NCBI GenBank assembly: GCA_902761665.1
Contig: CACWLA010000007.1
Coordinates: forward strand, 1 to 62,495
Reading direction: 5' to 3'
Length of the DNA stretch: 62,495 nucleotides
From: an uncultured Lachnospiraceae bacterium
Lineage (GTDB): Bacteria > Bacillota > Clostridia > Lachnospirales > Lachnospiraceae
Made by a program: the position numbers and the translations under genes. Positions 17,458 through 36,255 of this stretch are shown here, one piece after another. The notes beneath the pieces were generated by a model. That model did no database searches. It saw only the letters and a program-made list of their open reading frames with translations, and was not told where the DNA came from. Numbering within the stretch: the first letter of the stretch is position 1; each line of letters starts with the position of its first letter.

Positions 17458-17461
17458 CGAA

Positions 17462-19147: not shown

Positions 19148-19794
19148 AAGGGTATATATTTGACCTGGACGGCGTGATCGTTGACACCGCCAAGTACCAT
19201 TATCTGGGCTGGAAAAGACTGGCCGACGAACTGGGGCTTCGCTTCACGGCGCAGGATAACGAACTGCTGAAAGGCGTGAGCCGCATCCGTTCCTTCGAGA
19301 TCATTCTGGAACTGAACGGACGGGAAATGCCGGCGGAAGAGATCGAAAAGTACTGCACGGTCAAGAACGAATACTACGTACAGTATATCCGGAGGATCAC
19401 GCCGGACGAGATCCTGCCTGGCGTGCGCGGCTTCATCCGGGAGATCCGGAGGGAAGGGATCAGGACGGCGCTCGGTTCTGCGAGCAAGAACGCGCGCACG
19501 ATCCTGGACCGGCTGGGACTCGAGTCCTATTTTGACGCCGTGATCGACGGGACCATGGTGTCCAAGGCGAAGCCGGATCCCGAGGTATTCCTGAAGGGTG
19601 CGGAAGCGCTGGGGCTGGATCCCGGCGACTGCATCGTGTTTGAGGATGCTGTCGCTGGCATCGTCGCAGCGCATAACGGCGGCATGAAGGCCGTCGGCGT
19701 CGGCAACGCGGAAGTCCGCGAATGCTGCGATTTCTTTATTCCCTCATTCAGCGGCCTGACGGCAGCGGTCATCGAAAAGAAACTCGGCCTGTAA
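19144..19794 (+). CDS. pgmB: Beta-phosphoglucomutase, HAD superfamily
   Basis: A 216-residue HAD phosphatase-fold enzyme. FDLDGVIVDTAKYHYLGWKRLA at the N-terminus is the typical PgmB start with the nucleophile Asp and acid/base Asp two residues later, and the cap contains LKGVSRIRSFEIIL (LKGVSR being a hallmark of beta-PGM). Later motifs are LGSASKNAR and VFEDAVAGIVAA. Beta-PGM converts beta-glucose-1-phosphate to glucose-6-phosphate, so an upstream phosphorylase is normally expected. None of the usual alpha-glucoside phosphorylases is in this operon, which makes the GH3 enzyme or an unlinked gene the possible source. It overlaps the GH3 stop by 4 bp. Confidence 0.9.
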   Translation: MKGYIFDLDGVIVDTAKYHYLGWKRLADELGLRFTAQDNELLKGVSRIRSFEIILELNGREMPAEEIEKYCTVKNEYYVQYIRRITPDEILPGVRGFIREIRREGIRTALGSASKNARTILDRLGLESYFDAVIDGTMVSKAKPDPEVFLKGAEALGLDPGDCIVFEDAVAGIVAAHNGGMKAVGVGNAEVRECCDFFIPSFSGLTAAVIEKKLGL

Positions 19795-19838
19795 GGCGCT
19801 CCTCCCGGAGCGCCCGGCCGGTGAAAACGGAAAGCATC

Positions 19839-21299
19839 ATGAGCAACAAAGCGTTTTTAGATACGGCGGAAAGTCTGAAGCCGCATCTTTACAGGAAGAC
19901 GGTTACGCTCCCCGGGAAGGCGGAAAGCCTGAACCGGGGAGACGAAGCCACATATGATTTCGGGAAGCATTTGACCGGACGGGTCCGGCTCGTGCTTTCC
20001 GGGGAAGGGCACCATCCGGATGCCCCGGTCTGGCTGAGGCTCCGCTTTGCCGAAAGGCTGACGGAACTGTCGGAATCGCTGGAAGATTACCGCGGCTGGA
20101 TCAGCACCTCCTGGATCCAGGAGGAAGAACTGCGCGTCGACGTGCTGCCGGCGGAGATCCGCCTTCCGCGCCGCTACGCATTCCGTTATCTGCGGATCGA
20201 GGTGCGGGGGATCAGCAGCCGCTTCTCCCTGAAGATCAGGGAAGTCTCCTGCGAGGCAGCAACGAGTGCGGACGAAGAAGCACCGGAAAAGCTGCATTTC
20301 CGTGACCCGCTGCTTGACCGGGTCGACGAAGTCGCCTGCGCGACCCTCAGGGAGTGCATGCAGGAGGTCTTTGAAGACGGTCCCAAGAGGGACAGACGGC
20401 TGTGGCTCGGCGATCTGAGGCTCCAGGCGCTCACGAACTATGAGACCTTCCGGAACAATGATCTCGTAAAGCGCTGCCTGTATCTTTTCGCGGGTACGGC
20501 GCTCGCGGACGGCTCCCTTCCGACCTGCCTGTTCACGGAACCGGAGGTCGAAGGCGACGACCAGTATATGTTCGATTATTCCTTGCTGTTTGCGAAAGCG
20601 CTGCAGGACTATCATAAGGAAACGGGAGACCGGAAGACGGCGGAGGAACTCTGGCCGACGGTGAAGGCGCAGTTTGCCGCCGCGGAAGGTTTCTTCGGAC
20701 CGGACGGCCTGATCCGGGTACCGGAAGGCGCGGAACACTGGTGCTTCGTCGACTGGAATCTGGAACTTGACAAGGAGACTGCCGCCCTCGGCATATGGCT
20801 TTACTGCGCGGAAGCGGCGCTTTCCCTGGCGGAGACCGCGGGAGATGAGGCGTTCCGCAGAGAACTGTCGGAGAAAATGTCGGCAAGACGCAAAGCTGCC
20901 GAAGCGCTCTTTGACCCGGCAGCCGGCTTGTTTGTGAGCGGTCCTGCCCGCCAGATCTCCCTGGCGAGCCAGATCTGGGCGGTCCTCGGCGGCCTCACGG
21001 AGGATCCGGAGATCCTTTCGCGGGCGGCTTCCGCAGGCGCGCTGAAGATCGTTTCGCCGTATCTCATGCATTACGAACTTGAAGCGCTGATGAAGCTCGG
21101 CCGAAAGGAAGAAACGCTGGGCGTGATCCGTTCCTACTGGGGCGGCATGGTCCGGAACGGGGCGGATACCTTCTGGGAACTCTACGATCCCGAAGACCCC
21201 GACGGCTCGCCTTACGGCGGGACGATCGTCAACAGCTACTGCCACGCGTGGAGCTGCACGCCGTCGTATTTTCTGAGGCGGCATTTCAGAGACAGATAA
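19839..21299 (+). CDS. GH78-like (alpha-L-rhamnosidase-related) enzyme
   Basis: A 486-residue protein with a beta-rich N-terminal half (to about residue 150) and an (alpha/alpha)6-barrel C-terminal half. The key stretch EDGPKRDRRLWLGDLRLQA parallels the D-C-P-Q-R-D-E-R-x-x-W-x-G-D motif around the general acid of GH78 alpha-L-rhamnosidases; further support comes from YMFDYSLLFAKALQDY, HWCFVDWN and the late ADTFWELYDPE and NSYCHAWSCTPSYFL. It is much shorter than classical GH78 enzymes and lacks the extra beta domains, so it belongs to a reduced subgroup. No signal peptide is seen, so it acts inside the cell on imported saccharides. Last gene of the operon; the start has no strong site but fits the pgmB spacing. 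Confidence 0.78.
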   Translation: MSNKAFLDTAESLKPHLYRKTVTLPGKAESLNRGDEATYDFGKHLTGRVRLVLSGEGHHPDAPVWLRLRFAERLTELSESLEDYRGWISTSWIQEEELRVDVLPAEIRLPRRYAFRYLRIEVRGISSRFSLKIREVSCEAATSADEEAPEKLHFRDPLLDRVDEVACATLRECMQEVFEDGPKRDRRLWLGDLRLQALTNYETFRNNDLVKRCLYLFAGTALADGSLPTCLFTEPEVEGDDQYMFDYSLLFAKALQDYHKETGDRKTAEELWPTVKAQFAAAEGFFGPDGLIRVPEGAEHWCFVDWNLELDKETAALGIWLYCAEAALSLAETAGDEAFRRELSEKMSARRKAAEALFDPAAGLFVSGPARQISLASQIWAVLGGLTEDPEILSRAASAGALKIVSPYLMHYELEALMKLGRKEETLGVIRSYWGGMVRNGADTFWELYDPEDPDGSPYGGTIVNSYCHAWSCTPSYFLRRHFRDR

Positions 21300-21309
21300 A
21301 AGGAAAGAC

Positions 21310-21341
21310 CCCGGAAACAAACGGTTTCCGGGATTTTTTTT
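21310..21341 (+). terminator. Terminator of the sugar ABC operon
   Basis: CCCGGAAA / TTTCCGGG pair across a short loop and are followed by a run of eight T. It lies 10 bp after the GH78-like stop codon. Confidence 0.88.
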
Positions 21342-21476
21342 CGTGAAAAATCAAATTTTAAAAGCCGAGCGCACCGGTCCAGCCATCCACGCTTTTTCTG
21401 ACGCTATCCTGCTTGTTCCGGCTTGGCGTTTTCCGACCGCCGCAATGCCGCTTTTATGCCGTTTGGCGCGCGGTTC

Positions 21477-21505
21477 TTGAATTTTCGGCCTTTGCACTTT
21501 ATAGT
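21477..21505 (+). promoter_or_regulatory. Promoter of the giant gene
   Basis: TTGAAT (21477-21482), a 17-bp spacer and TATAGT (21500-21505) stand about 50 bp before the ATG at 21554; an AAGGAGG ribosome site follows. With the terminator on each side, the giant gene forms its own transcription unit. Confidence 0.65.
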
Positions 21506-21553
21506 AAAAATGCATTATTCAGAAACGTCATATCCGGACCAAGGAGGAATCAT

Positions 21554-24500
21554 ATGCCGGCTTTTACGATCCATGACCTGTACGCATCCATGGGAGGCGC
21601 CGCCTCGCCGCAGGACTACAGGAACAAAGAACGGAACACCTGGACGGTCTACGACTGGCTGAATGCCGTGACTGCAGGCGTGACCGGTGAAGGCGCGTCG
21701 CCTGCCGAGAGGCGGAAGATCGACAGCATCAAACGCGTGATCGGGAACATCGCCGCTTACAAGGCCATGCTGCCCGGCCTTACCGAACAGCAAATGGCCG
21801 CCGATTACGGCCGCCGCTTCAGGGACCTGCACCGTCAGATTGCGGAGCTTGCCGCGCTGCCTGCGGGAGCTCTGAGGGACGAAGACAGGGAACTGCTCTC
21901 CGGAATCGTTCAGGCCATGCCCGAACCTGACAGTGAACAGGTCATCGCCGAGGCGGAAACGGCTGTCGCCGTCGCCCGCTACAAGGCGGACGCGCAGGCG
22001 TATATTGAAAGACAGATCAGAGAGCGCTACCGCGAAGAAGCCAAGGCAGGCAAGGGCGACTTTGCCGTCCGCGAAAAACTGGCCTCGCGCTGCTACGTCG
22101 CGAACTTCCTGTCGGAACACGCTGCCGAGCTCATCCCGAACGGCTATCCGAGACGCTTTACGCCCGAGTATATCGAGACGGTTTCAAATCAGCTGCTGGA
22201 AGACGATATCTATAAGTTCCGTATCGATTTTGAACTGAACCACCATCCCCTGCCTCCCCTGCCCCAGCCGGGACAGGAGGCGCAGTACCGCGCGCAGATC
22301 CGCCAGAATCTGAACGATCTGGACCAGGGCGTCAACCAGGCGGCCATCGCCGGCGGCTCGCTGGAGCACGATCTCGGCGGCAGAGCGCTGGATCCCTCAA
22401 GAGTCCAGCAGCGCCTTGCGGTCCTGCGCGACGTGAAAAAGGCCTTGGACGCGACCGGGACCGGCTACAAGGTCTTCTATTTCAACCGCCGCGATGAAAA
22501 CTCGACCGAATATGAACGCGTGCGCCGCGAGGTCGACCGCCAGCTGAAGCGTCTGGAAGCCGGCCTCCCGCTCGGGCCCGCCGACGACCGGGCCATGCTG
22601 GAAAGACTGGACGACTATACCCACGACCGCGAGAAGGAGCCGTTCTACGGCTACGCGAAGATCCGCCAGAACAACGTACTGAAGCTTTACTCGGAATACA
22701 CCCGCTTCCCCGCGCCTCACGAGCCGAACGAAGACCCGCCCTATCCGAGCGCAGCCTTCGTACAGCAGCGTTTCAATCAGGGACGCGGCGTGGCGGACAA
22801 CCCCGATTCCGCGGACTACGTCAACCTCGCGTCGAGGAAATATGCCTTCGACGTCAACGACCGGCCCGGGGATGCCCGCACGAAATACCGGGAGACCCTG
22901 GCTGCTTTGGAGCGCCAGCAGGCGCAGGCCGCAGCCGGAAGGGCGCTGAGCGACAGCCAGAGACTTGTCATGGAACAGAATATCCGCCGCCTGTACGCGC
23001 TGCACACCCAGATGGTGACCGACAGGGCGGGACTTTTCGCACCTTACGATGAGGCTGCACTGCGGAGGATCATGGCGGACCAGCAGAACGCGCCTGCCGT
23101 ACTCGCCGCCGTCAATGCCGCGAACCGCTCCTCCGCCTCCTTCGGCGAGCTGCTGGGAACCTTCCGCGCGACGGACCACGCTGCGGCAAGCCGGCTTTAC
23201 TTTGACGACCCGGCCCATTTCGAGGATCCTCTGCGCGCAGAAATACAGCAGATCTCCTATCCGACCGTTCAGCAGCACCTTACCGCTGCACTGACTGAGC
23301 TGAACACCATGCAGATGCCCGGACCGGGCGTTCCGCTCTCACCCGAACAGGCTGACCGGCTCATGGATCTGAGCCTTCGGATCATTGCTCTGAAACCCCT
23401 GGCCGCCGCGCCGGAGGGAGCCGGCAGGCACCTGAGCGAAGGTGATCTGGCAAAGGCGATCGACGACGCGACCGGCTACAGCTATGCCCGCGACGCTGCC
23501 CTTAACTGCAGGCGGGACGGTCAGCTGGCAAACGAATACAGGGCAAGCCTTAACGCGGCTTCGTCCCTGCCGGATCTTCTGGACCGCGCCGACCGCTTCG
23601 CGCTGGGGCACGTCGGTACGATGATGGATGAAGCCGTCCGCGCCGTGACGGATCTTCCGGACGGCATGCAGCTCGACGATGCCGCAGCGACGGAGGAGGC
23701 CCTGGTCACGATCGCCGCGATCGCGAATCTTCGCGACAATGCCGAAGGGTATCTGCCCGGCCGCAATTTCCTTTCCCGGAACATGTTCACGCATGCCGAA
23801 CTTGACGCCGCGAAGGCTGCGGTTCGCGGGAATCAGGCCTTCATGAACGCGATCGGCCATCCGGCAAATTCCACCGATCTGAAGCGGACCGTAAACAGCA
23901 TGGCTTCCCTGCGCTACGCGCGCCTGCTTGCGGAAGCCGACGCGCAGGCTGCCACCGTCCGGAACCCGGTATCGCCTGAAGGCCTGACCCGGACGAGAGA
24001 AGAATACAAGGAACGCTTTGCCCGCATGATGGCTCTCCGTACCCTCCAGAGGAACGCGAACAACAGCTCCCTCCCCGTCAGCGACGAACAGCTGCAGGAG
24101 ACGGTGCAGCGCATCAAACTTACGGAAGAATATCTGGCCGTCGCCCGCGCGATCGACCGGACCCCGCACGCCATTTACGGCATCATCGACGGCTTCCGCC
24201 GGCAGGGCAGCGAACTGGATGCCTACCTTCAGGAGCAGCCGGCGGCGGTGCCTTATGCCGAGGCGCCTGTCGGATCCATCGGTTCCCGCTATGACCTGCA
24301 GTTCCTGAATTCCGGCCAGTACGGCGCACAGCTGGATACGCCCGAGGGGCGGCAGCATCTCGGTGAATTCGTTCTCGCCGTCATGACGTACCGGCAGATG
24401 GCGGCGGAAGCCCCGCAGGGGTATCTTACGGCATTTGATCCGCAGGAGTACCTGCGCGTGCAGAACAGCATCCGGACGAGCCAGGACTATCGGTCCTTCG

Positions 24501-27500
24501 TTCAGAGAATGACGGCCAGCGAATACATCGCGAGGGACATCTACGTTTCCCTGACGCAGTACGCCCCGCCGATCTATCTTCTGAAAGGCGCGTATGACCG
24601 CGCGCAGGCGGACGGCCTCCCGTACGTGGATCCGATCGTGGTCCGGATGAGAGAACTGTCCGCCGAACGGGCCGAAGAGGTCAACAGCAGAGGCATCAAC
24701 AGCCTTTCTTCCATGCTCGCGGATTATAAACGCGGCACGCCGCTGACGGAAAATCAGCGGAATGACCTGATGGATGCCGCCGTGCTGATGGTCGCCGGAA
24801 AGAACTTCGTCGATACTTACGGCAGGCAGCACAGCGTGAGCGCCGCAGATCTGGACGCGAAAATCGCCGAACTGAAGGCGGGTGAGACCGAAGAATCCCG
24901 CAGCCTCCGGATGGCGGTCGAGCGCGCGGCGCTTGACGGCGGCAGTGTCGGCGAGTTGATGGCGCTCCTCAACGTGCCTTCGAACGAACGCGCGCAGGCT
25001 CTCGCGGACTACGCGAAACTTACGCCGGCTGAGTGGGCACAGAAGGCGCAGGAGACCCTGAATTATTTCAATACCGTGGATCATCCCGCTCCCTGGACGG
25101 AAGCGGAGATCGGCAATGTCGTCAATACCTACGCGCAGCTCCACGTCATGCGCATGCTGGAGAAGGATCCGGCGGCGGCCAACATGAAGCTGAGCGCCGC
25201 CGAACTGCAGCAGCGCGCGGATCAGTATCTGACGGACGACGTGCGCGCCGAGCTGCGCTACGGCTTCGGCGTGCCCACGAACATGTTCTCCCGCAACATG
25301 ATCCGGAACCAGATCGAAAACACCGAACAGCGCGATACGGACAGCAGGATGCAGCGGATGAGCAAGCTGCAGACGCTCATGGCGCTGCACAACCTGGAAA
25401 AGAAATACTTCCCCGGCGCTTTCGTGAACCGGAACGAACTGTACCGGGAGATGCAGGCCGTCCAGAGAGACGTGCCCTTCAAGGTGCTCACGCATGAAGG
25501 CAATGACCTGATCCCGCCGGTCGAAATCAGAAATCTGCGCGGGAAAGCGCTGCATGAAGCCATCGAGAACTTCGTGTACAATTCTCCGCTGCGCCGCACG
25601 GTCGTTCTCGGCGGCGAAAGTCCGGACAGCGCTCTGGGACGCGTCAGGCTGATGGCCGACGAGGTCCGCCATGACAGCGCCCTCGGCCGTACGCAGGACA
25701 TGCACCGGCACCTCGCGAAAATGCTCATCATGAGCCTGCACAACGACGTGCATTTTCAGCCTTATGAGCTTCCGACCGCTGAAGACCTCACGCGGCTTGC
25801 GCAGGACCTTCTGCAGGATCCGGACTTTGCGGCAGCCATGGCGACGCTGGACAAGTTCCCTGAAAAGCAGAGAGCATTCATCCGCGAACTGCAGAACGGC
25901 CTGGACGGCATGGCGCTCATCCGGGAACTGGACGATCTAGCAGATACGGAGAAACGCACCGCGAACCCGCGCGGCTTCAAGCGCTCCAACATTGCCCTGA
26001 ACATGCGGCAGTCACAGCTTGATCAGGTGAGCGCTCACCTGAAGGGCACCCCTCATGCGCCTGCATGGCCGACGTCCGGCGACCGCACGAGGGAACGCAT
26101 TCATTCCGAATATCTTCAGTTCACGGCGCTTAGCAGGCTGCACAGGGCCAATCCTCACAGGATGTTCTTCAGCCTCAACGAGATCGGGGCAGAGATGCGG
26201 ACCGTTGCGAACGATCCCGGGATGCAGGAGGACATGGCGGTCCTGCTCGAAAACCCCGGAAGCTTCCGCTCATATATCTACAATACCGGTTCCATGACGC
26301 TGTGGACAGGCCTTCAGGACCTTGAGACGCTCGGCCGTGACCTCGTCAACGCGGCGCCGGATGACCCTGCCATGGTCAGCAACGCCCTCGCGAGCATTGA
26401 CGAGACTCTTCCGCCCATGATCGCCGCCAAACTGAACGGGACAGCCGAGACCGGCAGACTGACGCTGAACGATCCTTACAACAAAACGGCTTCCCTGATC
26501 GGCCACAGTGACGATTACCTTGCCGTCAGCAACGCGCTGCGCCATAACATCAACGAGATCGACCGCATCAGGGACCTGATGATGCTTCCCACGGGCCAGT
26601 TTGAAGAGGCGTATAAGAAGTATGCGGCTGACTGCCGGAAACGTTATCCGGAAACACCCATCCCCAAACAGGACAGTGTCGGCTATGTCTACCATGCCGC
26701 GAAGACCCGCGTCCTTGCAGCCGATCCTGCCGGGATGGCTGAGGATGACGCTGCCCGCGCGAGACTGGCAGCCGATATCCGCGAGATCTTCTCGCTGCGC
26801 GACGCGGTCCTGAATTCACGGTTCGACTCCGTCAAGTACAAAAACAACGTAGACGAATATTCGACCCGTGACCATGAGCTCGTGACGGGCGTCGAAGCGA
26901 AAAACAAGACGCATCTGGACAATATCCTGGGGAATCTGGACGAAAGACTGAAGGATCCGGCGGTCGCCAGGGGCTTCATCGAACTGATCAGGGATTCGGA
27001 AAGCCTGCCCAGGCTGTTCGGCAAAAAACTGGAAGCCGGCGCCGAGATCACGGATCCTCTCGAGGAAAAACTCAGGGACCGCGGCCTTTCCGCAAAGCCC
27101 CTTTCCCATGAGGAACGCCGCGCGCAGTTGATCGCCCGGATCAGGCAGGAAGTGCCCGGAGAAGATGAGGCGGCGCGGAAAGCCCGCGTGACCGGACTGA
27201 TCGCCGAACTCTATAACGTGAGCCTCCATGCCGCAGGTGTCCCGGCGTATCTGATGCCTTCCGCAGAGGAACTGGCAGCGCAGGCGGCGTCGCTTGGGCA
27301 GATGGATGATTTTAAGCACGCCGCGAACCGGCTGGCCGACGATCCCGCGGCGCTTGCGGATCTGCTTGCCGCAGCGGAAAAGGGCTTGACGCCTGAGCAG
27401 TTCGCCGACCGCCTGAACGCGCTGTCCAGACAGGAACAGCTGATCCGGGATCCGCTCTGCGATCCGTACCCCAACATCCTGCTCGATACCCGGCAGAACC

Positions 27501-29233
27501 GGCTCGGACAGGCGTATAACAGGGTCAAGTCCTTCGCCGGACCTGCACTCAGCTGGGGAGAGATCGGCAGCGAGCCTGCGCGGCAGGCCTTCCTGGAATT
27601 CACCGCCTACAACAGTCTGCTGGAACGAAACCCCGGCCGGGTCTATTTCACCCCTTCCGAACTTCGCGACAGCTACCGCAGGGCTGAAACGGATCCCGCG
27701 CTCATGGAAGCACTGCGAAAAACCCTGGCATCGCCGAAAAAGCTCAGGGACGAACTGTTTAACTATGCCGGAAACGCGACCGTCGTCGGCATCGAGCAGG
27801 CCAGGCAGTACGTCAAAATGATAGAAATGCCCTCCATGGACATGGTCGGCCGCAAAGGACTGGTTGACCTGACGATCCCGAACATCGGCGACCTGCTCCG
27901 CCTCAGAAGGCAGAAGCAGATCGAAAGCAACCGCCCGTCTCCCGCGGCGGATACCATCGCGACAGCGGCGGCTTTCAGGCAGACGGAAGACTTCAAGCTG
28001 CTGTTTGCAGCTGCGATGTGCGACGCGCAGAGCATCAACAGGCTGATCAATGACATCTATCTCTGCAGCTTAGAAGAGATGGAAACGAGATACCGCGCGC
28101 GGATCGAGGAACTGAAGAAACCGTTGGATCTCGTGAAGCACGGCATCCGGACGCTGGATAAGCTGCACGGGATCGCGGACGATTTCCCGGATGACGTCTC
28201 CATGACGAGATCCATGCACAGCCGCATGTCCGCGCACCTGGCGGATCTGTACATCGTCAACATGTATGAGGGCGTTTCCGCGGATAAGCATCCGAATGTC
28301 AAGGAGTTCATTGACAAGCGCGACGCGCTGGAGAATACGCCTGAATTCAAGGCGGCCGCGGCGTGGTATGCCGACCACCCGGAGGAACTGAGGACACTTC
28401 TGAGCGATCTGGAGAACGGCCTTTCGCCTAAACAGTTCACCGCTGCCCTCAACCTGGCCGCGGCTTCGGAAGTAAAGAGAAACAGGCAGGCGGGGATCCG
28501 GGGCGTTCCTGACCTCGGCGGTAAAACGAAGGAGCTCTTCGCGGTTCCGGAGCCGGCGCCTCAGCCGGTACCCGCGCCTCAGCCCGTCCCTCAGCCCGTA
28601 CCCGCTCCTCAGCCTGCTCCGGTACCGGTCCGGCCTGCGCAGCCGCCGGTAAATGTCATCAACGAGCCGAAGCCGGAAGAGAAGAAGGCGGTTCCCGAAT
28701 CTAAGTACGACAAGGATCCGCTCATGCAGCAGTATCAGCGCTCCGCCGCGCAGCTTGAGAAAGTCCTCCGGATGCGTGAATCCAGCGGCATCGAAGCGGC
28801 CAACCCGCAGTTCATCGCCGCCGTAAACGACGGGATCTGCAAGTCGGTCGCTCTGCAGAACCTTGCCTTACTCCCGCAGCATAAGGGGACGAAGATCGAC
28901 AAAAATGCGATCTCCGCCGAGACGGAGAGAGTAAAGCAGGAGATGGCCGGAAGCGGTCTGGACAAAGCCCTGCAGGATCCGAAGACAGCAGAGACCGCTC
29001 TCGAAGGCATCAGGAAACTGGAAGGCAACGCGAAAGGGCTGAATGAGTTCATGAAGGCCCTGGCGAAGGATCCGGCCGCCGCAAAGAAACAGCTGGACCG
29101 CGTCTCCGACACTAACTCCCGTCATGAGATCCGTGACGACAGCAAGAAGATCCCGGCGGAAAACCGGAACCTGAAGGAAGGCAAGAACAAGGAGCAGGAT
29201 CAGAGCAGGGAACAGGATCAGCCCGTCGTCTGA
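21554..29233 (+). CDS. Giant helical repeat protein of unknown function
   Basis: A 2559-residue protein that I do not recognise. It has no signal peptide, no membrane helix and no visible catalytic motif, and reads as almost entirely alpha-helical. A degenerate module recurs: a hydrophobic helix (such as TLMALHNLEKKYFPG), then a phi-x-phi-S/N-x-x-E-L turn, then a second helix containing D-P/D-x-x-F-x-x-A. Copies are seen near residues 721, 829, 1076, 1192, 1277, 1389, 1523, 1883, 2016 and 2229. Two longer segments align best: NIALNMRQSQLDQV (1479) with FTALSRLHRANPHR (1523), and NILLDTRQNRLGQA (1974) with FTAYNSLLERNPGR (2016). A Pro-Gln-Ala-Val linker (about 2330-2366) separates a Lys/Glu-rich tail. 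The start is fixed by AAGGAGG. Own promoter and terminator; not in an operon. A scaffold, sequestration or surface-independent effector role are all open. Confidence 0.85.
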   Translation: MPAFTIHDLYASMGGAASPQDYRNKERNTWTVYDWLNAVTAGVTGEGASPAERRKIDSIKRVIGNIAAYKAMLPGLTEQQMAADYGRRFRDLHRQIAELAALPAGALRDEDRELLSGIVQAMPEPDSEQVIAEAETAVAVARYKADAQAYIERQIRERYREEAKAGKGDFAVREKLASRCYVANFLSEHAAELIPNGYPRRFTPEYIETVSNQLLEDDIYKFRIDFELNHHPLPPLPQPGQEAQYRAQIRQNLNDLDQGVNQAAIAGGSLEHDLGGRALDPSRVQQRLAVLRDVKKALDATGTGYKVFYFNRRDENSTEYERVRREVDRQLKRLEAGLPLGPADDRAMLERLDDYTHDREKEPFYGYAKIRQNNVLKLYSEYTRFPAPHEPNEDPPYPSAAFVQQRFNQGRGVADNPDSADYVNLASRKYAFDVNDRPGDARTKYRETLAALERQQAQAAAGRALSDSQRLVMEQNIRRLYALHTQMVTDRAGLFAPYDEAALRRIMADQQNAPAVLAAVNAANRSSASFGELLGTFRATDHAAASRLYFDDPAHFEDPLRAEIQQISYPTVQQHLTAALTELNTMQMPGPGVPLSPEQADRLMDLSLRIIALKPLAAAPEGAGRHLSEGDLAKAIDDATGYSYARDAALNCRRDGQLANEYRASLNAASSLPDLLDRADRFALGHVGTMMDEAVRAVTDLPDGMQLDDAAATEEALVTIAAIANLRDNAEGYLPGRNFLSRNMFTHAELDAAKAAVRGNQAFMNAIGHPANSTDLKRTVNSMASLRYARLLAEADAQAATVRNPVSPEGLTRTREEYKERFARMMALRTLQRNANNSSLPVSDEQLQETVQRIKLTEEYLAVARAIDRTPHAIYGIIDGFRRQGSELDAYLQEQPAAVPYAEAPVGSIGSRYDLQFLNSGQYGAQLDTPEGRQHLGEFVLAVMTYRQMAAEAPQGYLTAFDPQEYLRVQNSIRTSQDYRSFVQRMTASEYIARDIYVSLTQYAPPIYLLKGAYDRAQADGLPYVDPIVVRMRELSAERAEEVNSRGINSLSSMLADYKRGTPLTENQRNDLMDAAVLMVAGKNFVDTYGRQHSVSAADLDAKIAELKAGETEESRSLRMAVERAALDGGSVGELMALLNVPSNERAQALADYAKLTPAEWAQKAQETLNYFNTVDHPAPWTEAEIGNVVNTYAQLHVMRMLEKDPAAANMKLSAAELQQRADQYLTDDVRAELRYGFGVPTNMFSRNMIRNQIENTEQRDTDSRMQRMSKLQTLMALHNLEKKYFPGAFVNRNELYREMQAVQRDVPFKVLTHEGNDLIPPVEIRNLRGKALHEAIENFVYNSPLRRTVVLGGESPDSALGRVRLMADEVRHDSALGRTQDMHRHLAKMLIMSLHNDVHFQPYELPTAEDLTRLAQDLLQDPDFAAAMATLDKFPEKQRAFIRELQNGLDGMALIRELDDLADTEKRTANPRGFKRSNIALNMRQSQLDQVSAHLKGTPHAPAWPTSGDRTRERIHSEYLQFTALSRLHRANPHRMFFSLNEIGAEMRTVANDPGMQEDMAVLLENPGSFRSYIYNTGSMTLWTGLQDLETLGRDLVNAAPDDPAMVSNALASIDETLPPMIAAKLNGTAETGRLTLNDPYNKTASLIGHSDDYLAVSNALRHNINEIDRIRDLMMLPTGQFEEAYKKYAADCRKRYPETPIPKQDSVGYVYHAAKTRVLAADPAGMAEDDAARARLAADIREIFSLRDAVLNSRFDSVKYKNNVDEYSTRDHELVTGVEAKNKTHLDNILGNLDERLKDPAVARGFIELIRDSESLPRLFGKKLEAGAEITDPLEEKLRDRGLSAKPLSHEERRAQLIARIRQEVPGEDEAARKARVTGLIAELYNVSLHAAGVPAYLMPSAEELAAQAASLGQMDDFKHAANRLADDPAALADLLAAAEKGLTPEQFADRLNALSRQEQLIRDPLCDPYPNILLDTRQNRLGQAYNRVKSFAGPALSWGEIGSEPARQAFLEFTAYNSLLERNPGRVYFTPSELRDSYRRAETDPALMEALRKTLASPKKLRDELFNYAGNATVVGIEQARQYVKMIEMPSMDMVGRKGLVDLTIPNIGDLLRLRRQKQIESNRPSPAADTIATAAAFRQTEDFKLLFAAAMCDAQSINRLINDIYLCSLEEMETRYRARIEELKKPLDLVKHGIRTLDKLHGIADDFPDDVSMTRSMHSRMSAHLADLYIVNMYEGVSADKHPNVKEFIDKRDALENTPEFKAAAAWYADHPEELRTLLSDLENGLSPKQFTAALNLAAASEVKRNRQAGIRGVPDLGGKTKELFAVPEPAPQPVPAPQPVPQPVPAPQPAPVPVRPAQPPVNVINEPKPEEKKAVPESKYDKDPLMQQYQRSAAQLEKVLRMRESSGIEAANPQFIAAVNDGICKSVALQNLALLPQHKGTKIDKNAISAETERVKQEMAGSGLDKALQDPKTAETALEGIRKLEGNAKGLNEFMKALAKDPAAAKKQLDRVSDTNSRHEIRDDSKKIPAENRNLKEGKNKEQDQSREQDQPVV

Positions 29234-29251
29234 TCCGCCGACACACAAAAA

Positions 29252-29294
29252 AGAAGACCCCGGCGGTCCGTGGGACCTGCCGGGGCCTTCTTTG
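29252..29294. terminator. Terminator of the giant gene
   Basis: A long GC-rich stem (GAAGACCCCGGCGGTCC against GGACCTGCCGGGGCCTTC, with one or two mismatches) is followed by TTT. A-rich sequence before it makes it usable on the opposite strand too, where the DUF4256 gene approaches. Confidence 0.8.
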
Positions 29295-29335
29295 TCTGCG
29301 GCAGTCTATTCCTCTTTCAGCTGCCGGATCTCCGC

Positions 29336-29857
29336 TTACACGAGGATGTACCCTCTCCACCCGCGGACGGAGTAATAGGAGTCCGCGCCGTTATGGAAGG
29401 TGAAAACGGTGCCGTAGCGCCGCTCGCAGAAGAGGGCGCCGCCGAGTTTTCGGATCTCCGGGGGCGTCGCGATCCAGCTGGAGGTCTTCAGGTCGAATTC
29501 CCCGAGCGTCTGGAGTCTTCGGTACAGTGCTTCGGTCATGAGCTTCACGCCGATCGTTTCCGCCTCATGCGCCGCGCTTCCCGAAGGCGGGTTCTTCGCG
29601 CGCTTCCTGAGCGCCTCGTCGTCATAGCAGAGGCTCCTCCGCCCCGCAGGTGTTTCCTTCGCGCAGTCGCAGAAGATGAGTTTTCCCGTCTCATCGTCAA
29701 AACCGACCGTGTCCGGCTCTCCACCGCTTTCCTCCATGCGGCGAAGGATCTCAAGCGCGTCCGGATCTTCCCGCAGGCGCTGCTCCACGGTCTCCCAATC
29801 AAGCCCGGGATGGCGTGTCATGTTTTCGTGAAATCTTTTTTCCAGCAGTTCAAGCAT
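29336..29857 (-). CDS. DUF4256 domain protein
   Basis: A 173-residue protein filling the whole DUF4256 family. Recognisable conserved stretches are LLEKRFHENMTRHPGLDW, EESGGEPDTVGFD, IFCDCAKETPAGRRSLCYD, TLGEFDLKTSSWI and FCERRYGTVFTFHNGADSYYS. The function of the family is not known; the many conserved Cys, Asp and Arg residues suggest an enzyme or a ligand-binding protein in the cytoplasm. It is the downstream partner of the SLC13/ArsB-type carrier, with a 37-bp gap. Confidence 0.9.
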   Translation of the reverse strand: MLELLEKRFHENMTRHPGLDWETVEQRLREDPDALEILRRMEESGGEPDTVGFDDETGKLIFCDCAKETPAGRRSLCYDDEALRKRAKNPPSGSAAHEAETIGVKLMTEALYRRLQTLGEFDLKTSSWIATPPEIRKLGGALFCERRYGTVFTFHNGADSYYSVRGWRGYILV

Positions 29858-29894
29858 CGTGAAAGCTCCTTTTCATCAGGCCCGCCGTGCCGCG

Positions 29895-31040
29895 TCAGGA
29901 GAAGAAATCCCAGCGCGAAAGCAGGAGGCCGGGGATCACGACCAGCAGGAAGAAGGCCCAGCTGATCAGGGTAAAAGTCCGGATGAACGCCTTGCCGTTT
30001 CCGGGGTATTCGCGCACGTAGATCCGGTAATTGATCACCGAGGCGAGAGAACCGATGAGGGAACATAGGCCGGCCGTGTCGGCGCCGTAGATCAGGCCGG
30101 CGAAATTCCGGCTGAACGGATACAGCACGATGGTCGCGGGAACGTTGGAGATCAGCTGGCTGAGCCCGATGGCCCACCAGTATTCATGCCCGGCAACGGC
30201 CTTCTCCAGAAATCCGCCGACCGAAGGATTCCGCGCGACGGAAGAAGAGAAGACGAAGAAGCACAGGAAGGTCGCGAGCAGCACGTAGTCCACCTTCCCG
30301 AGGAGCCGGCGGTCGGCGAAGGTGATCGTAAGCAGCACGAAGGCCAGAGCAGCCGGCCACAGTGACGTACGGGTAACGATGACAAGCAGTACGATGACGA
30401 AAAGGCCAACATACATCTGGTAAAGGAAACTTTTCTTCTTTATAAAAGTTTCCTCGCTGCTGAGGGAGACCGGATCGTGAAGATTTCTCCTGAAGACAAA
30501 AAACACGAAGCCGATCAGCAGCACTCCGGAAAGCAGGCACAGCGGGAGCATGTGCAGCATGAACCGGCCGGCGCCGATCTCGGCCTGCCCGTAGAGGAAA
30601 AGGTTCTGCGGGCTGCCGAAAGGTGTGAGGAGAGAGCCGCGGACGGCAGCGATATTCTCCAGAGTGATCACCGGCAGAATGAACTTTTCCCGGCCGGCCT
30701 GCCGGAACAGCAGGATGGTTAACGGCACGAAGATCAGAAGTGAAACGTCATTCGTCACGAACATGGAGGAGAAAAACACGCAGAAGACCAGAAACAGGCT
30801 CAGGGAAGTCATGGACTTCAGTTTCCCTGCCAGCGCGACCAGCGGCTGCAGCACGTTCTCCTGCTTGAATCCTTCCAGAACGCAGAGCATCATCAGCAGG
30901 ATCCCCAGGGTGCGCCAGTCGATCCCGCGAAGCAGCTCCGCCGTGGGCGGAGTCATGATGAGTCCGGCTGCCGCGGCGATCACCGACAGGAGGAGCATCG
31001 GTTCCTTTTTCAGATAATTGATCAGCTTGTATGCACTCAT
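29895..31040 (-). CDS. SLC13/ArsB-type anion transporter
   Basis: A 381-residue membrane protein of the ion-transporter (IT) superfamily with about ten to eleven hydrophobic segments. Features include MLCVLEGFKQENVLQPL, SSMFVTNDVSLLIFVPL (the TND motif of the first hairpin), ENIAAVRGSLLTPFGSPQNLFLY (the clear ArsB/NhaD/SLC13 motif with PxGxxxN-like loop) and the repeat-related SQLISNVPATIVLYPFS. Possible substrates are dicarboxylates or oxyanions; no arsenic genes are beside it. The start MSAYKLINY is preferred over a Met ten codons upstream because AGGAG stands before it. Confidence 0.87.
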   Translation of the reverse strand: MSAYKLINYLKKEPMLLLSVIAAAAGLIMTPPTAELLRGIDWRTLGILLMMLCVLEGFKQENVLQPLVALAGKLKSMTSLSLFLVFCVFFSSMFVTNDVSLLIFVPLTILLFRQAGREKFILPVITLENIAAVRGSLLTPFGSPQNLFLYGQAEIGAGRFMLHMLPLCLLSGVLLIGFVFFVFRRNLHDPVSLSSEETFIKKKSFLYQMYVGLFVIVLLVIVTRTSLWPAALAFVLLTITFADRRLLGKVDYVLLATFLCFFVFSSSVARNPSVGGFLEKAVAGHEYWWAIGLSQLISNVPATIVLYPFSRNFAGLIYGADTAGLCSLIGSLASVINYRIYVREYPGNGKAFIRTFTLISWAFFLLVVIPGLLLSRWDFFS

Positions 31041-31159
31041 GATGATCTCCTGAAGCGGAATCTGCATCCCGGTTCTTCTTTATACCATCTTGCTCCGGCC
31101 AGCGAATCCGTTATCATGTTTTTCATCTTTTCCATTCACAAACGGGAAGTTATGCCGTT

Positions 31160-32233
31160 TCAGTCACAGGAATAATCTGCGAGGAGCGCCAGCAGTTCCA
31201 GAATCTCGCTCCGTAAGGATTCGTCCTTCAATCCGTCAAGGAAGAAACATACCTGCGGCCAGCCTGCAGCAAGTGCGATCCAGCTGTACCATCGGATCGC
31301 CTGTTTCTCCAGTTCGGAAGCATGGTATATCTGAAACATACGTTCCTGATATTTCCGATAGCTTTCCATAGCGTATGCCATCCTCGCCTCCGCTCCGATG
31401 GGGTCAAGCACTTCCTCCCTGAATCCTCCGCCCAAATTGGCAAACTGGTTGACGACGACTTCTGTCCCGGCCATATTAAAATCAATTAAACCTGCTAGAT
31501 GTTTATTTTCATCAACAAGGACATTGCTCAAATTCTCGTCTGCCTGAAATACGCAGCGCGGTAGAGTTTGATAAACAGACCTGATCTTGTCGCGGATCAG
31601 CCTGTGTCTGGCTGTCAGTCTCTCTGCCAGAGCGATTTCTCCCATCTTCTGAAGGGTTTCGCATAGATTGTCGAAATTCTGCTGCTTTTCGTCTTTGCCT
31701 ATTGGTATGTCGAAGGGAGCGAGATCAAACAGGCTGTACATCCCCATTGTTTTTGACAGATCAACATTTCGGTATGCTTCCGCAAAACCTGCTACACTGT
31801 CCAAAACCTCCTGCCAGAGCCTTTCCTCCTCCTGCGGTTCCAGCTGCAGTTCATCCGCAGTTGGAAGATCGATATATTCCTGCAGATACCCTGTAAAACC
31901 ATTCCATTCATGAAAAAATCGTCCTTCGCGGTCGGGCAGAAAACGCGGGCACCTTAGTCCGAAGTTTATATACCTTTCGATCAGTCGGTTTAGTTCTGTC
32001 AGCCTCTGCTCCGTCATATCGGGAGCGTTGCATAGCCGGAGTACCCATCTTTTATCAATGATGTAATTAAGTCTGATGTCATCGGCACTGTGAGAAGTGT
32101 CGATCAAGCGTATGCCACCTCGGCCTGTATAGCCAAATTTTGACAGTTCAGAAAGGATGTCGCTCTGTTCAGGTATTCTCATATCCGCAGGAAAACACTT
32201 CCCGGGCATCAAGGATGTTTTTTGCGATTCCAT
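31160..32233 (-). CDS. Phosphotransferase (APH-like) family protein
   Basis: A 357-residue protein with an aminoglycoside-phosphotransferase-like kinase fold. The catalytic loop reads CVFQADENLSNVLVDENK, keeping the catalytic Asp and the Asn of HxDxxxxN but with Gln in place of His, and the metal-binding strand LAGLIDFNMAG follows, again with Asp. The N-lobe has WVLRLCN with a likely Arg in place of the usual Lys. Such enzymes phosphorylate small molecules or sugars rather than only drugs, so resistance should not be assumed. The sequence is less GC-rich than its neighbours, which hints at acquisition. The start at 32233 has GGAG with 9-nt spacing; the Met three codons earlier is too close to it. 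Confidence 0.8.
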   Translation of the reverse strand: MESQKTSLMPGKCFPADMRIPEQSDILSELSKFGYTGRGGIRLIDTSHSADDIRLNYIIDKRWVLRLCNAPDMTEQRLTELNRLIERYINFGLRCPRFLPDREGRFFHEWNGFTGYLQEYIDLPTADELQLEPQEEERLWQEVLDSVAGFAEAYRNVDLSKTMGMYSLFDLAPFDIPIGKDEKQQNFDNLCETLQKMGEIALAERLTARHRLIRDKIRSVYQTLPRCVFQADENLSNVLVDENKHLAGLIDFNMAGTEVVVNQFANLGGGFREEVLDPIGAEARMAYAMESYRKYQERMFQIYHASELEKQAIRWYSWIALAAGWPQVCFFLDGLKDESLRSEILELLALLADYSCD

Positions 32234-32384
32234 CGTTATCATCTCCGTAAGTTTCGATCTGTCGGGTTCTTTTATCTCTCGACAATTATATCATACCATA
32301 ATGCACTCTGGTTTAGAAGATACTGCAGTCCCATCATTTTTCTGACAAACAGAATGATCCCGGCAGCATCGAAAACATGGAAAT

Positions 32385-32414
32385 AAAGAAAAAAGGATCG
32401 TCTTTCGACAATCC
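32385..32414 (-). terminator. Minus-strand terminator after the decayed ORF
   Basis: On the minus strand GGATTGTC / GACGATCC (with a G-U pair) closes a 4-nt loop and is followed by TTTTTTCTTTATTT. It lies immediately after the stop of the broken ORF, which suggests that a real gene once ended here. Confidence 0.7.
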
Positions 32415-32416
32415 TT

Positions 32417-32890
32417 CTATGGAAAAACCGGTTTTTCAGGCAATCGGAGCCCGAGGCGCCTCGGGTGCCTACTATCCCCCAGCAGCGTAGTCACCGTGCC
32501 ATTGATCCGCTGGCCTTCCGGCGCGGCCGGAATACGCTTCTCGAGCCCGTATCCTGTTTTCCTTTCGACCTGGCAGATATTGCGGATAGCGATGATCTCC
32601 GCGGCGGCGGATTCCTGCACAGACGCATCGTCCGGTGCATTCTTCACCTGCCGTTTCAATTCCTCTATCCGTTCTTTCGCGGTCGGCATGAAGCGGGCAA
32701 GCTCCGGCGCGTTCTCCAGTTGGCCTGCTTCAAGTTTCAGCAGGTATTTTTTAAACTCGTCTTCAATATACCCGCCGTGCGTATTGGAAGTATTTGTTAA
32801 TAGTCTTCCGACAGTTATCTTTCAGCACTTCAATACGGCGACGATCTCGTCTCCGTCCTGATCCTCGTTTTGTTTGATCGGGTACTTCAT
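32417..32890 (-). pseudogene. Broken ORF of a helical hypothetical protein
   Basis: A continuous reading frame starts at 32890 with MKYPIKQNEDQDGDE, hits TGA at 32822-32824, and then continues open through GGYIEDEFKKYLLKLEAGQ, LENAPELARFMPTAKER and AAAEIIAIRNICQVERKTG to a stop at 32417. The last part could also start at ATG 32689 as a 90-residue protein. The Glu/Lys/Leu-rich helical composition resembles the larger unknown proteins nearby, but no family is recognised. The internal TGA, the lack of a ribosome site at 32890, and decayed neighbours indicate a remnant. Confidence 0.55.
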
Positions 32891-32928
32891 CAAATTACAA
32901 GCGGTGCGTATCTTGCCGTCAAACCGGC

Positions 32929-33261: not shown

Positions 33262-33362
33262 TCTTCATTTGCTCCTGATCTCATACCTGCTGCAATTATC
33301 TCATTGGTAATCATCTCCGGGGTTTTGCCGACTCCATATGCACCGTTAAGCCAATAGATCAT
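33255..33362 (-). pseudogene. Truncated P-loop ATPase/kinase remnant
   Basis: A 35-codon ORF begins with AAAGGAG and ATG and reads MIYWLNGAYGVGKT, the exact look of the N-terminus of small P-loop kinases (GxxGxGKT), then PEMITNEIIAAGMRSGANEEC and stop. The expected 150 or more residues after the Walker A Thr are missing, so the N-terminal phosphate loop seems joined directly to what may be a C-terminal tail by an internal deletion. It would not be functional. Confidence 0.7.
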
Positions 33363-34062: not shown

Positions 34063-36255
34063 TCATCCGAGGATGATCTTATTCTCTTTGTTTTTTTCCG
34101 CCGCAGTGTCCCTGCCTTTGTTTCCGGCACCGGCAGCAGGTCCCGCTTCAGGTCCCGTCTCTTTGAGCTGGTTTCTTAAGGCATATTTTTTGAGCTCGGG
34201 ATCCCGCTCAAGCATGTTTCTGACCCGGGTGTTGATCTCGGTCATGACGGTCTTTTCCGTGCCGTCGGCACGGCTTTTGATTTCCTGGCCGGTCCTCCGG
34301 ATGGCAATCGAAAGAAGCTCGCCGAGACGCTGTTTATTGCCCTGTCCGTAGGCCTGAAGCGCCGCGTTCGCCATGCGCCTGCCGTCGGCGATCTGCTCGT
34401 CGGAAGGATGCAGCAGGTCGTCATTGATCAGCATATCGTTCCTTTTCGGAAGGGATAAGGCGCAGGAATAAGCAATCGCGGTGTAGTCCCGGTTGGAGAG
34501 ATTCCCCAGCGTTTCATTGCCGCGAAGTCCGATCGCGGGATACGTTTCCCCGGGGCCCGGGACGATCGCCGTGTCGAGTTCGGCGAGTTCGTAGCCGTAG
34601 CGGTTGGGAAAATCGGTCGCGAAGTCCTTCGTCGCTTCCTGCGCTTCCTGTTCGTTATTCTTTGCGTTCACGATGAACGTTTGCTTCCTTGACGCAAGTG
34701 AGTCGAGCGTTATCTTGTCATTCTCGCCGCGCTTGGCGTTTATATTCTGAAGAAGTTCCTGGAATTTTGCCGGCGTCAGTTCTTGGTAAAGAAGCGTCAG
34801 CGCGGTATTGAAGCGCAGTTGCCCTTCAGGGCTGCGCCTCTTCGGGTATTTATCGTCAATATAGTCCCTGATTGCAAGATACATCTCGTTCCTGCGGCTG
34901 AGTGCCTTTCCGCCCTCATTTGCGGCAAGCGCCCGGTGATATTTTTTAATGGCAGTTACCATTTTTTCGTAAGACTTGCTGTTCTCACTGTGATACTTCC
35001 AGGTGCTTCCGGTGCCTTCCAGCGCAAGCAGCGCGCCTTTTGTGGCAAACATTTTCTCCGTGTATACGGCTTTTCCCGCGCTGTAGGATTCGGAAAGACC
35101 GGGTTCTTCACGCATCATCAGAGGCTTTTCGGATAAAATGTACTCGTCGATCTTCCTGAGATCCTTAAAAATGAACTCGCGGTGGAACTTTTTGTCGAGC
35201 GCTTTCAGATCCGGGAATCTTTCTTCCATTTTTTCCTCAAACTCTTTGCGTTCCTTGCCGAGCAGATCATTAAGTTTTACGCCTTTCTGATACTCTTTCC
35301 TTTCAGCGCCCTGAAGTCCTTTTTCATATTTCTCGGCGCCGCTTCTCTTCCAGCTTGCCGACACCTTGGAGGCATAGTTATTGGCGAGCTTCTTGATCGC
35401 TTCGCGTTCGAAGGTGTTCCGCATTTCCTCTTCGCTGTTAAAGACTTTGCCCTTTTTTTCAGCATTGTCCTTTTCCTTTTGATAATAGACGTCATAGACC
35501 CGGTCGTTCGCGGAACATTTTGAGTTTTTCAGGAAGAGTGCCTGTTCCTCTTCTGTCATTTTAGCCAAAGCGCAGTACTCGCTGACCGTCATGGTCCGGC
35601 CTTCGGGCCTGTTCAGCCTTGCCGTGAAATCGGCTGTCAGCAGATTGGACATATGTACGATATATTCCACATCATTTCCGTTCTGCCGGAAGCTCCGGTC
35701 ATCGAGCTGACTGAACATCGCTTCCACACCCTGGAGGATCCTGTTGGGCAGAACATCCGCCTTGCCCACCAGATAATCCGCCATGTCATCTTTCGTCTGC
35801 TCATCCAGATCGCCGGGCAGTTCCTTGCGGATCTCTTCGCGCGCCTTCGCGAGTTCATGCGCGGCCTTTGCGGAGATCAGGCCGAGCGTAGAATAAAAGT
35901 TTTCAAAATCCTGCAGGGTCGGAGGCACTTCCATGAGACTGTCTACGGCCCCCCGGATCAGCTGATCTTCCCGATCGTACAAAATTTCGTCTCTTCCTAA
36001 TTCTGAGGGGCCTCTCAGCCCAAGGTCGTACTTTTCCTCATCCGTAAGAAGATCATAATTATGGAGATAGGTGTTTCTCGCGATCATCAAAAGAGCCATG
36101 TACGTCTTATCGAGGGGGATGTACTGCTTCTCGGCGGTCTTTTTGATTTTTTTGTCCGTTTCTTCATTTACGCTGTCCGCGCGTTCGTCAAAAATGGCCT
36201 GTTTCGTTTCCGGATCTGCGTTTTTTAAACGGTCAATGATCTTCTTGGTGGGCAT
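34063..36255 (-). CDS. Large helical protein of unknown function (730 aa)
   Basis: Not recognised. The protein is 730 residues, strongly charged (Lys, Glu, Asp) and predicted by eye to be helical throughout, with coiled-coil-like stretches (for example FEREAIKKLANNYASKVSA and KERKEFEEKMEERFPD). No signal peptide, membrane segment or catalytic motif is visible. The N-terminus begins MPTKKIIDRLKNADPETKQ, and the C-terminus is a low-complexity Gly/Ala/Lys tail after DPELKKYALRNQL. It has its own promoter candidate and an AGGAAGGA ribosome site. Its size, solubility and isolation parallel the giant gene 5 kb away, although no clear shared module was found by eye. A chaperone-like, scaffolding or secreted effector role cannot be told apart. 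Confidence 0.82.
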   Translation of the reverse strand: MPTKKIIDRLKNADPETKQAIFDERADSVNEETDKKIKKTAEKQYIPLDKTYMALLMIARNTYLHNYDLLTDEEKYDLGLRGPSELGRDEILYDREDQLIRGAVDSLMEVPPTLQDFENFYSTLGLISAKAAHELAKAREEIRKELPGDLDEQTKDDMADYLVGKADVLPNRILQGVEAMFSQLDDRSFRQNGNDVEYIVHMSNLLTADFTARLNRPEGRTMTVSEYCALAKMTEEEQALFLKNSKCSANDRVYDVYYQKEKDNAEKKGKVFNSEEEMRNTFEREAIKKLANNYASKVSASWKRSGAEKYEKGLQGAERKEYQKGVKLNDLLGKERKEFEEKMEERFPDLKALDKKFHREFIFKDLRKIDEYILSEKPLMMREEPGLSESYSAGKAVYTEKMFATKGALLALEGTGSTWKYHSENSKSYEKMVTAIKKYHRALAANEGGKALSRRNEMYLAIRDYIDDKYPKRRSPEGQLRFNTALTLLYQELTPAKFQELLQNINAKRGENDKITLDSLASRKQTFIVNAKNNEQEAQEATKDFATDFPNRYGYELAELDTAIVPGPGETYPAIGLRGNETLGNLSNRDYTAIAYSCALSLPKRNDMLINDDLLHPSDEQIADGRRMANAALQAYGQGNKQRLGELLSIAIRRTGQEIKSRADGTEKTVMTEINTRVRNMLERDPELKKYALRNQLKETGPEAGPAAGAGNKGRDTAAEKNKENKIILG

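What the first reader, a model, noticed from the sequence alone, without database searches (positions are those of the whole stretch)
21554..29233. Giant 2559-residue helical repeat protein with no recognisable function
One 7.7-kb ORF with its own promoter, AAGGAGG site and terminator. It has no signal peptide, membrane segment or catalytic motif, but at least ten degenerate copies of a helix-turn-helix-like module (helix, hydrophobic turn with ExL, helix with D-x-x-F-x-x-A). Two longer segments about 495 residues apart align well (1479/1523 with 1974/2016). The Pro/Gln linker and charged tail mark a separate C-terminal end. A cell keeping so large a solo gene intact suggests strong selection.
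Basis: partly seen in the sequence, partly recalled or inferred. Interest (0 to 1): 0.85.

Follow-up and report, generated by a model that had tools for sequence, protein, structure and literature searches.

The report
Giant putative secretion-system cargo of rumen bacteria
A huge repeat protein from an uncultured gut bacterium appears to be one of a family of very large proteins that travel with a type IV secretion machine and are found mostly in bacteria of the ruminant stomach, which would make it a candidate protein that these bacteria inject into neighbouring cells.

Summary
The ORF is real (21554-29233, 2559 aa) and is a helical repeat protein: ten module copies of two types and a super-repeat of about 500 residues. 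It matches no described family. It is not solitary: the genome has a 3032-aa paralogue (33% identical) beside a kinase-domain gene, and diverged homologues were found in three other genomes, two of them beside such a kinase. Members of this kinase family also lie in chromosomal type IV secretion (T4SS) loci (VirB6, VirB4, VirD4, in part SpoIIE/RsbW regulators) with rows of large orphan proteins. The machine's VirB4 is in 41 of 50 kinase-bearing genomes against 16 of 299 family genomes, and in 4 of 4 giant-bearing genomes found. These proteins share a lack of membrane segments, frequent Met-Pro starts and N/Q/K/P-rich tails that often carry GP/GM (not this protein's own tail). Of 18 kinase-bearing assemblies from a whole-gut ruminant catalogue, 17 come from the stomach. 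Best reading: a giant effector-like substrate of a Gram-positive T4SS, possibly aimed at rumen ciliates. Translocation and target are inferred, not shown. Whether Gram-positive T4SSs became dedicated effector translocators is an acknowledged open question (PMC12857230).

The parts
21554..29233 (+). giant ORF P0001, 2559 aa, no hydrophobic segment
21541..21547 (+). AAGGAGG ribosome-binding site
   Evidence: read
21477..21505 (+). promoter-like TTGAAT-17-TATAGT; not above chance
   Evidence: 1 found, 1.9 expected in shuffles
22970..23155 (+). module Y, residues 473-534
   Evidence: i-E 2.4e-14
23693..23908 (+). module Y, residues 714-785
   Evidence: i-E 1.2e-11
24005..24199 (+). module Y, residues 818-882
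   Evidence: i-E 2.6e-18
25358..25471 (+). module Y (partial), residues 1269-1306
   Evidence: i-E 9.6e-12
25709..25969 (+). module X, residues 1386-1472
   Evidence: i-E 2.7e-31
26102..26290 (+). module Y, residues 1517-1579
   Evidence: i-E 4e-21
27200..27454 (+). module X, residues 1883-1967
   Evidence: i-E 1.7e-31
27578..27772 (+). module Y, residues 2009-2073
   Evidence: i-E 3.1e-22
28235..28483 (+). module X, residues 2228-2310
   Evidence: i-E 9.3e-32
28544..28693 (+). Pro/Gln-rich linker, residues about 2331-2380
   Evidence: sequence
28829..29014 (+). module Y, residues 2426-2487
   Evidence: i-E 2.1e-15
29102..29230 (+). charged N/Q/K-rich tail, proposed secretion signal (lacks the GP/GM signature)
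   Evidence: inferred role
29245..29300 (+). terminator-like hairpin
   Evidence: z -4.77
34063..36255 (-). P0005, second large soluble orphan protein with N/K-rich tail (start probably M52 of the listed ORF, by eye); partial homologues in large ORFs of G017

Best explanation
The protein is a giant effector-like substrate of a chromosomal Gram-positive type IV secretion system encoded elsewhere in the same genome (contig C9). Shown by computation: it belongs to a family of helical repeat proteins of about 2250-3030 aa (one possibly cut by a contig end) that is linked, by adjacency and by presence across genomes, to a kinase family and to this T4SS; and members of that wider class share start, solubility and tail features. 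Inferred: the disordered tail is recognised by the VirD4 coupling protein; the chain is unfolded and threaded through the VirB4/VirB6 channel on cell contact, in this genome under partner-switching control (SpoIIE/RsbW/STAS genes in the locus); inside the target the helical repeats refold into a long scaffold that binds or sequesters target proteins, alongside the PI4K/Fam20C-like kinases. The most likely target is a eukaryote of the ruminant forestomach, that is, ciliates that graze on bacteria.
For: Paralogue P0002 (3032 aa) ends 85 bp before a kinase-domain gene. Giants P0008 and P0009 lie beside such kinases (153 bp and 1.2 kb away, divergent) in two water-buffalo genomes. A kinase homologue lies in the T4SS locus of this genome (G000:C9), and 9 of 74 named kinase loci have a T4SS-locus gene within the fetched DNA (two of these are near-identical, and two show only SpoIIE). 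VirB4 at E<=1e-100 is in 41 of 50 kinase-bearing genomes versus 16 of 299 family genomes (Fisher 2e-31). In the 299, VirB4 is in 16, the kinase in 15, both in 9 (p 1e-9; 7e-8 without the genomes that gave queries or alignment rows). Giant-bearing genomes with the VirB4: 4 of 4. Same-genus genomes: 0 of 15 have the VirB4 and 0 of 15 an intact giant. Corrected counts: GP/GM in the last 12 residues in 33 of 91 effector-class proteins versus 4 of 132 background; Met-Pro start 35 of 91 versus 4 of 132; hydrophobic segment 1 of 91 versus 68 of 132. The tail is disordered in the model of a P0003 orthologue. No relaxase of three families lies on the T4SS contigs, and 5 of 10 long-VirB4 genomes have none of the three. 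The kinase fold is nearest to human PI4K II-beta and, by sequence, FAM20C. Of the RGIG-catalogue assemblies among the hits, 17 of 18 are from the stomach against 41.9% of that catalogue's species-level genomes.
Against: The giant is not next to the T4SS in this genome. P0001, P0002, P0003 and P0005 lack the GP/GM signature in their last 12 residues. The tail and Met-Pro tests were framed after seeing the sequences. Kinases occur without a detected VirB4: 6 of 15 (against 51), 8 of 50, and G014, 96% complete with an intact kinase. VirB4 occurs without the kinase in 7 of 16. SpoIIE was seen in only 4 of 9 long-VirB4 loci read, some of them cut by contig ends. The giant is rare, so its own link to the T4SS rests on 4 genomes. 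The giant model is of low confidence (pLDDT 64) with no fold match, and the kinase's PI4K match has low TM-scores (0.38-0.44 by target length). No translocation, expression or target data exist. The stomach comparison is with all genomes of the catalogue, not with this family alone, and rests on the best 80 of 192 kinase matches.
Confidence: 0.62

Rival explanations
1. The T4SS is a conjugative element and the large proteins are cargo that enters recipient bacteria with the DNA, like polyvalent proteins of conjugative elements.
For: The machine belongs to the conjugative Gram-positive lineage (VirB4_plasma, MMCAP2_0566, CD1115 models). Polyvalent proteins are multidomain, serve phages and conjugative elements, and include kinases (passages of PMC5512222). 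Four and three of the 10 long-VirB4 genomes do carry a PF03432 or PF01076 relaxase, on other contigs.
Against: No relaxase of PF03432, PF02486 or PF01076 on the T4SS contigs, and none of the three in 5 of 10 long-VirB4 genomes; other relaxase families were not searched. Of 19 array proteins, 15 have no Pfam match at E<=0.01 and none passes a cut-off, unlike the enzyme-rich polyvalent proteins. No plasmid or phage record matches the giant.
Confidence: 0.15
2. The proteins are antibacterial toxins delivered by the T4SS into competing rumen bacteria.
For: T4SSs that kill other bacteria are known (mentioned in the review passages). The rumen is densely populated.
Against: In the G017:C26 array 11 of 13 gaps between large genes are 6-392 bp, which leaves little room for immunity genes in most of them. 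The kinase fold is nearest to a eukaryotic lipid kinase.
Confidence: 0.12
3. The giant is a cytoplasmic or cell-surface scaffold of its own cell, merely co-inherited with the T4SS on genomic islands.
For: Helical repeats suit scaffolds. The gene is unlinked to the T4SS in this genome, and its own tail lacks the GP/GM signature.
Against: Shared start, tail and solubility features of the wider class; giant-kinase adjacency in three genomes; no intact copy in 15 same-genus genomes, none of which has the VirB4.
Confidence: 0.11

Closest known systems
Gram-positive conjugative T4SSs / mycoplasma ICE T4SS (NCBIfam VirB4_plasma NF045975, MMCAP2_0566 NF045848, CD1115 VirD4 NF045973)
   Same: VirB4, VirB6-like and VirD4 homologues in one locus; only the VirB6-like match passes its NCBIfam cut-off (142.7 against 90 bits)
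   Different: VirB4 open frames of about 1270-1610 aa, SpoIIE/RsbW/STAS genes in the locus of this genome, rows of large orphan proteins, no relaxase found nearby
[quoted passage not shown]
   Same: Gram-positive T4SS linked to protein export
   Different: Its substrate SspA-1 goes to the extracellular milieu; here there are many large proteins without hydrophobic segments.
Legionella Dot/Icm effectors, including kinases (PMC9758233 passages; PDB entries MavQ and LegK7 appear without significance)
   Same: Large cytoplasmic-type proteins, atypical kinases, C-terminal signal (recalled for Legionella), protozoan target (proposed here)
   Different: No sequence match, Gram-positive host, different T4SS lineage
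Polyvalent proteins of phages and conjugative elements (PMC5512222 passages)
   Same: Large proteins linked to a T4SS-type apparatus
   Different: Those are strings of catalytic domains in mobile elements; the giant is a helical repeat without a recognised domain
FAM20C / PI4K II kinases
   Same: The associated kinase matches Fam20C (Pfam 2.2e-7, PDB 5yh3 2.6e-4) and its fold is nearest to PI4K II-beta
   Different: Bacterial, about 750 aa, no hydrophobic segment in P0003, helical flanks and a disordered tail

Membership tests
T4SS effector | translocation that depends on the T4SS | not testable with these tools
   needs an experiment
T4SS effector | the genome carries a T4SS with a coupling protein | tested here: met
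   G000:C9 VirB6, VirB4, VirD4; 4 of 4 giant-bearing genomes have the VirB4
T4SS effector | gene adjacent to the T4SS locus (frequent, not required) | tested here: not met
   the giant is on C7, its paralogue on C25, the T4SS on C9; relatives of the linked kinase are adjacent in some genomes
T4SS effector | hydrophilic disordered C-terminal signal shared with other substrates | tested here: inconclusive
   tail composition fits and 3 of 5 giants carry GP near the end, but P0001 and P0002 lack it
Polyvalent protein | several catalytic domains in one chain | tested here: not met
   no domain above cut-off in P0001 or P0002
Polyvalent protein / conjugative cargo | carried by a phage, plasmid or relaxase-bearing element | tested here: not met
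   no phage or plasmid match; no relaxase of the three families searched on the T4SS contig
Known helical repeat families (TPR, HEAT, ankyrin and others in Pfam) | profile match | tested here: not met
   nothing below E 0.079, nothing over a cut-off
Solved helical scaffolds | significant fold match | tested here: inconclusive
   best E 2.1, from a low-confidence model
Fam20C / PI3-PI4 kinase-like (the linked kinase P0003) | conserved DRHxxN and IDND motifs and kinase fold | tested here: met
   alignments of 11 and 30 sequences, with single departures; Pfam 31.2 bits over cut-off 26.8; Foldseek PI4K II-beta 9.5e-5, low TM

The most novel reading that the evidence does not exclude
A dedicated effector-delivering type IV secretion system of Gram-positive rumen bacteria, with repertoires of giant orphan proteins and PI4K/Fam20C-like kinases, injected into rumen ciliates as a defence against grazing or to set up association; the 2559-aa solenoid would be among the largest T4SS substrates proposed (recalled comparison).
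Probability: 0.3. Interest if true: 0.95.

Novelty: new variant of a known kind. Interest (0 to 1): 0.83.

Why it matters
A 2025 review states that whether Gram-positive T4SSs evolved as dedicated effector translocators is a long-standing question (PMC12857230 passages). The T4SS with its orphan-protein arrays gives a concrete, patchy and testable candidate, and three named isolates carry both kinase and VirB4 (Lachnospiraceae bacteria AC2029 and YSB2008, Eubacterium ruminantium FB3002). If the target is ciliates, it would be a molecular handle on bacteria-protozoa interaction in the rumen. It also gives a likely role to a class of huge proteins without annotation. Nine searches of the held library showed no paper on this system in the rows listed; several lists were cut (for example 12 of 685 and 10 of 921), and subscription journals and preprints are not held.

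Tried and rejected
Direct family, PDB-sequence, plasmid and phage searches with the giant gave nothing. A pattern scan of named genomes with the giant alone gave no relative; P0008 and P0009 came only through the linked kinase. P0003 shows no significant BLASTP match to P0005 or P0002, nor P0001 to P0005. The module profile found no copies outside the giants beyond one weak match (E 5e-5, L097 ORF), so the giants and the arrays share ends and context, not the repeat. Of 19 array proteins, 15 have no Pfam match at E<=0.01 and none passes a cut-off. The giant's fold search gave chance matches only. A split into long and short VirB4 (10 and 6 of 16) was seen, but kinase ORFs also follow a short one (G150), so it does not define the system. 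Rejected: spurious ORF (full-length paralogue), prophage or plasmid gene. At least two array-type proteins of other T4SS loci stayed in the background set, which works against the contrast.

Full report
What is there. The ORF at 21554-29233 codes for 2559 residues with a good ribosome site and a strong hairpin after the stop. It has no hydrophobic segment and matches no family or solved sequence. The promoter-like match is at chance level.

Repeats. With four family members I built profile windows and searched them against themselves: 468 off-diagonal matches, 15 in reversed and 0 in shuffled sequences. Iterated profiles give two helical modules, Y (about 65 residues; 34 copies in four giants) and X (about 85 residues; 11 copies). 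A model of residues 1258-2090 is all helix but of low confidence (pLDDT 64.4, pTM 0.36; three sequences), with no fold match.

Not solitary. The genome has a 3032-aa paralogue, 33% identical along its length. In 60 relatives the giant is otherwise absent except for two weak matches to short stretches that include the linker (G054, G017) and, in one same-genus genome (G013), the last 56 codons at 89% identity. In the 19.7 kb of G013 compared, pieces matching window 9992-10109 (84%) and 29071-31043 (96%) lie about 350 bp apart, so the DNA between is not there; gene order around it is otherwise rearranged. Since the tail remains, loss of the giant in G013 is the simpler reading; whether the other genes of that stretch lie elsewhere in G013 was not tested. 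In 299 genomes of the family the central profile is found in 2 (G000, G254). Two more giants, P0008 and P0009, 26% identical to P0001, came from water-buffalo rumen and omasum genomes.

The kinase link. 85 bp after P0002 comes P0003 (751 aa), with a Fam20C match of 2.2e-7. P0008 and P0009 also lie beside such kinases; the G254 giant does not, on the 15 kb read. Kinase alignments keep DRHxxN and IDND motifs with few departures. A model of a P0003 orthologue from 30 sequences (pLDDT 89.0) has a disordered tail; two Foldseek matches pass E 0.001, both human PI4K II-beta (9.5e-5 and 6.0e-4; TM 0.38-0.44 by target length). CotH kinase and Legionella MavQ follow without significance. The profile reaches FAM20C at 2.6e-4.

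The secretion system. A P0003 homologue (E 1.2e-54) is the second gene after a T4SS locus in G000:C9: VirB6-like 644 aa, VirB4 1333 aa, a 2126-aa secreted-type protein, VirD4 677 aa (its last 459 residues were scanned), STAS, RsbW-like and SpoIIE proteins, then 936-, 854- (kinase), 470-, 612- and 747-aa proteins near the contig end. That the VirB4 N-terminus is a PrgI-type fusion is my reading from recall. G017:C26 has a similar set of genes, with VirD4 at the other end, and 14 large proteins of 553-1717 aa. In seven further long-VirB4 loci VirB4, VirB6 and VirD4 recur in 7 of 7 and SpoIIE in 2 of 7, some loci being cut by contig ends. The kinase match in G014 and the fragment in G013, both without VirB4, may be remains after loss; this is inference, and they also count against a strict link.

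Co-occurrence. VirB4 at 1e-100: 16 of 299; kinase at 1e-10: 15 of 299; both: 9 (p 1e-9, or 7e-8 without G000, G017 and G021). In 50 of the 54 named kinase assemblies, 42 have VirB4 at 1e-50 and 41 at 1e-100; against 16 of 299 this gives p 2e-31. These sets differ in taxonomy, and at least three of the 50 are also in the 299 (same contig coordinates: G017, G254, G114). All four giant-bearing genomes found have the VirB4; in RGIG7540 VirB6, VirB4 and VirD4 were read in one locus.

Shared ends. The effector-class set is 68 kinases and 23 further array or window proteins (near-identical tails and one duplicate dropped). GP or GM falls in the last 12 residues of 25 and 8; for the kinases the shuffle mean is 3.0. 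In 132 background proteins it is 4, of which at least 2 belong to T4SS loci. Met-Pro starts: 28 of 68, 7 of 23, 4 of 132. N+Q+K+P in the last 30 residues: 36%, 41% and 19%. The motif was chosen after reading the tails, and P0001, P0002, P0003 and P0005 do not carry it; the giants P0008, P0009 and that of G254 do.

Where they live. The 74 named kinase loci (from the best 80 of 192 matches) come from 54 assemblies. By title, 17 are rumen, omasum or abomasum; 11 carry RUG names (rumen uncultured genomes, recalled); 6 are isolates that I recall as rumen isolates; 1 is cattle colon; 19 titles do not tell. Within the RGIG catalogue, which sampled the whole tract, 17 of 18 are from the stomach, against 41.9% of its species-level genomes (passages of PMC8199421; binomial 4e-6). 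Hosts by title include Lachnospiraceae, Oscillospiraceae, Erysipelotrichaceae and Acholeplasmatales, which would fit transfer within this habitat; no tree was built.

Mechanism and limits. Tight arrays with little room for immunity genes (11 of 13 gaps 6-392 bp, one array), a PI4K-like kinase companion and the stomach bias point to eukaryotic targets; ciliates are the obvious ones. A paper on ruminal ciliates notes that types 4 and 6 secretion systems let some protist-associated Proteobacteria survive in ciliates (PMC6079354 passages). None of this shows translocation. The steps shown are homology, linkage, co-occurrence and shared ends; recognition by VirD4, threading and action in the target are inferred.

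Noticed in passing
window 31000-37000: A lower-GC stretch (about 0.47-0.53 against about 0.60) that holds P0005 and an APH-like phosphotransferase (31160-32242); it may be acquired. GC is also low at 56000-62000.
   Followed up: partly
window 10109-29071: Not present between the matching pieces of the close relative G013 (L010); in the window it holds ABC-transporter, GH3, HAD and rhamnosidase genes and nearly all of the giant.
   Followed up: partly
L031:8626-12609: A 1327-aa G017 array protein has two kinase-domain matches in tandem.
   Followed up: no
G014:C10 (L039:7776-10079) and G000:C31 (L038:1937-4240): Nearly identical 767-aa kinase proteins in two species, of which only G000 has the T4SS VirB4.
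   Followed up: partly
L041:11941-18321: A 2126-aa protein with a hydrophobic N-terminus in the T4SS locus, no family match beyond a weak CshA-type repeat; relatives recur in other loci and it could be the cell-surface part of the machine.
   Followed up: no
G150:C24 (L093:17600-20000): Kinase-domain ORFs also follow a T4SS with the short VirB4 (898 aa); there the match is spread over two ORFs.
   Followed up: no
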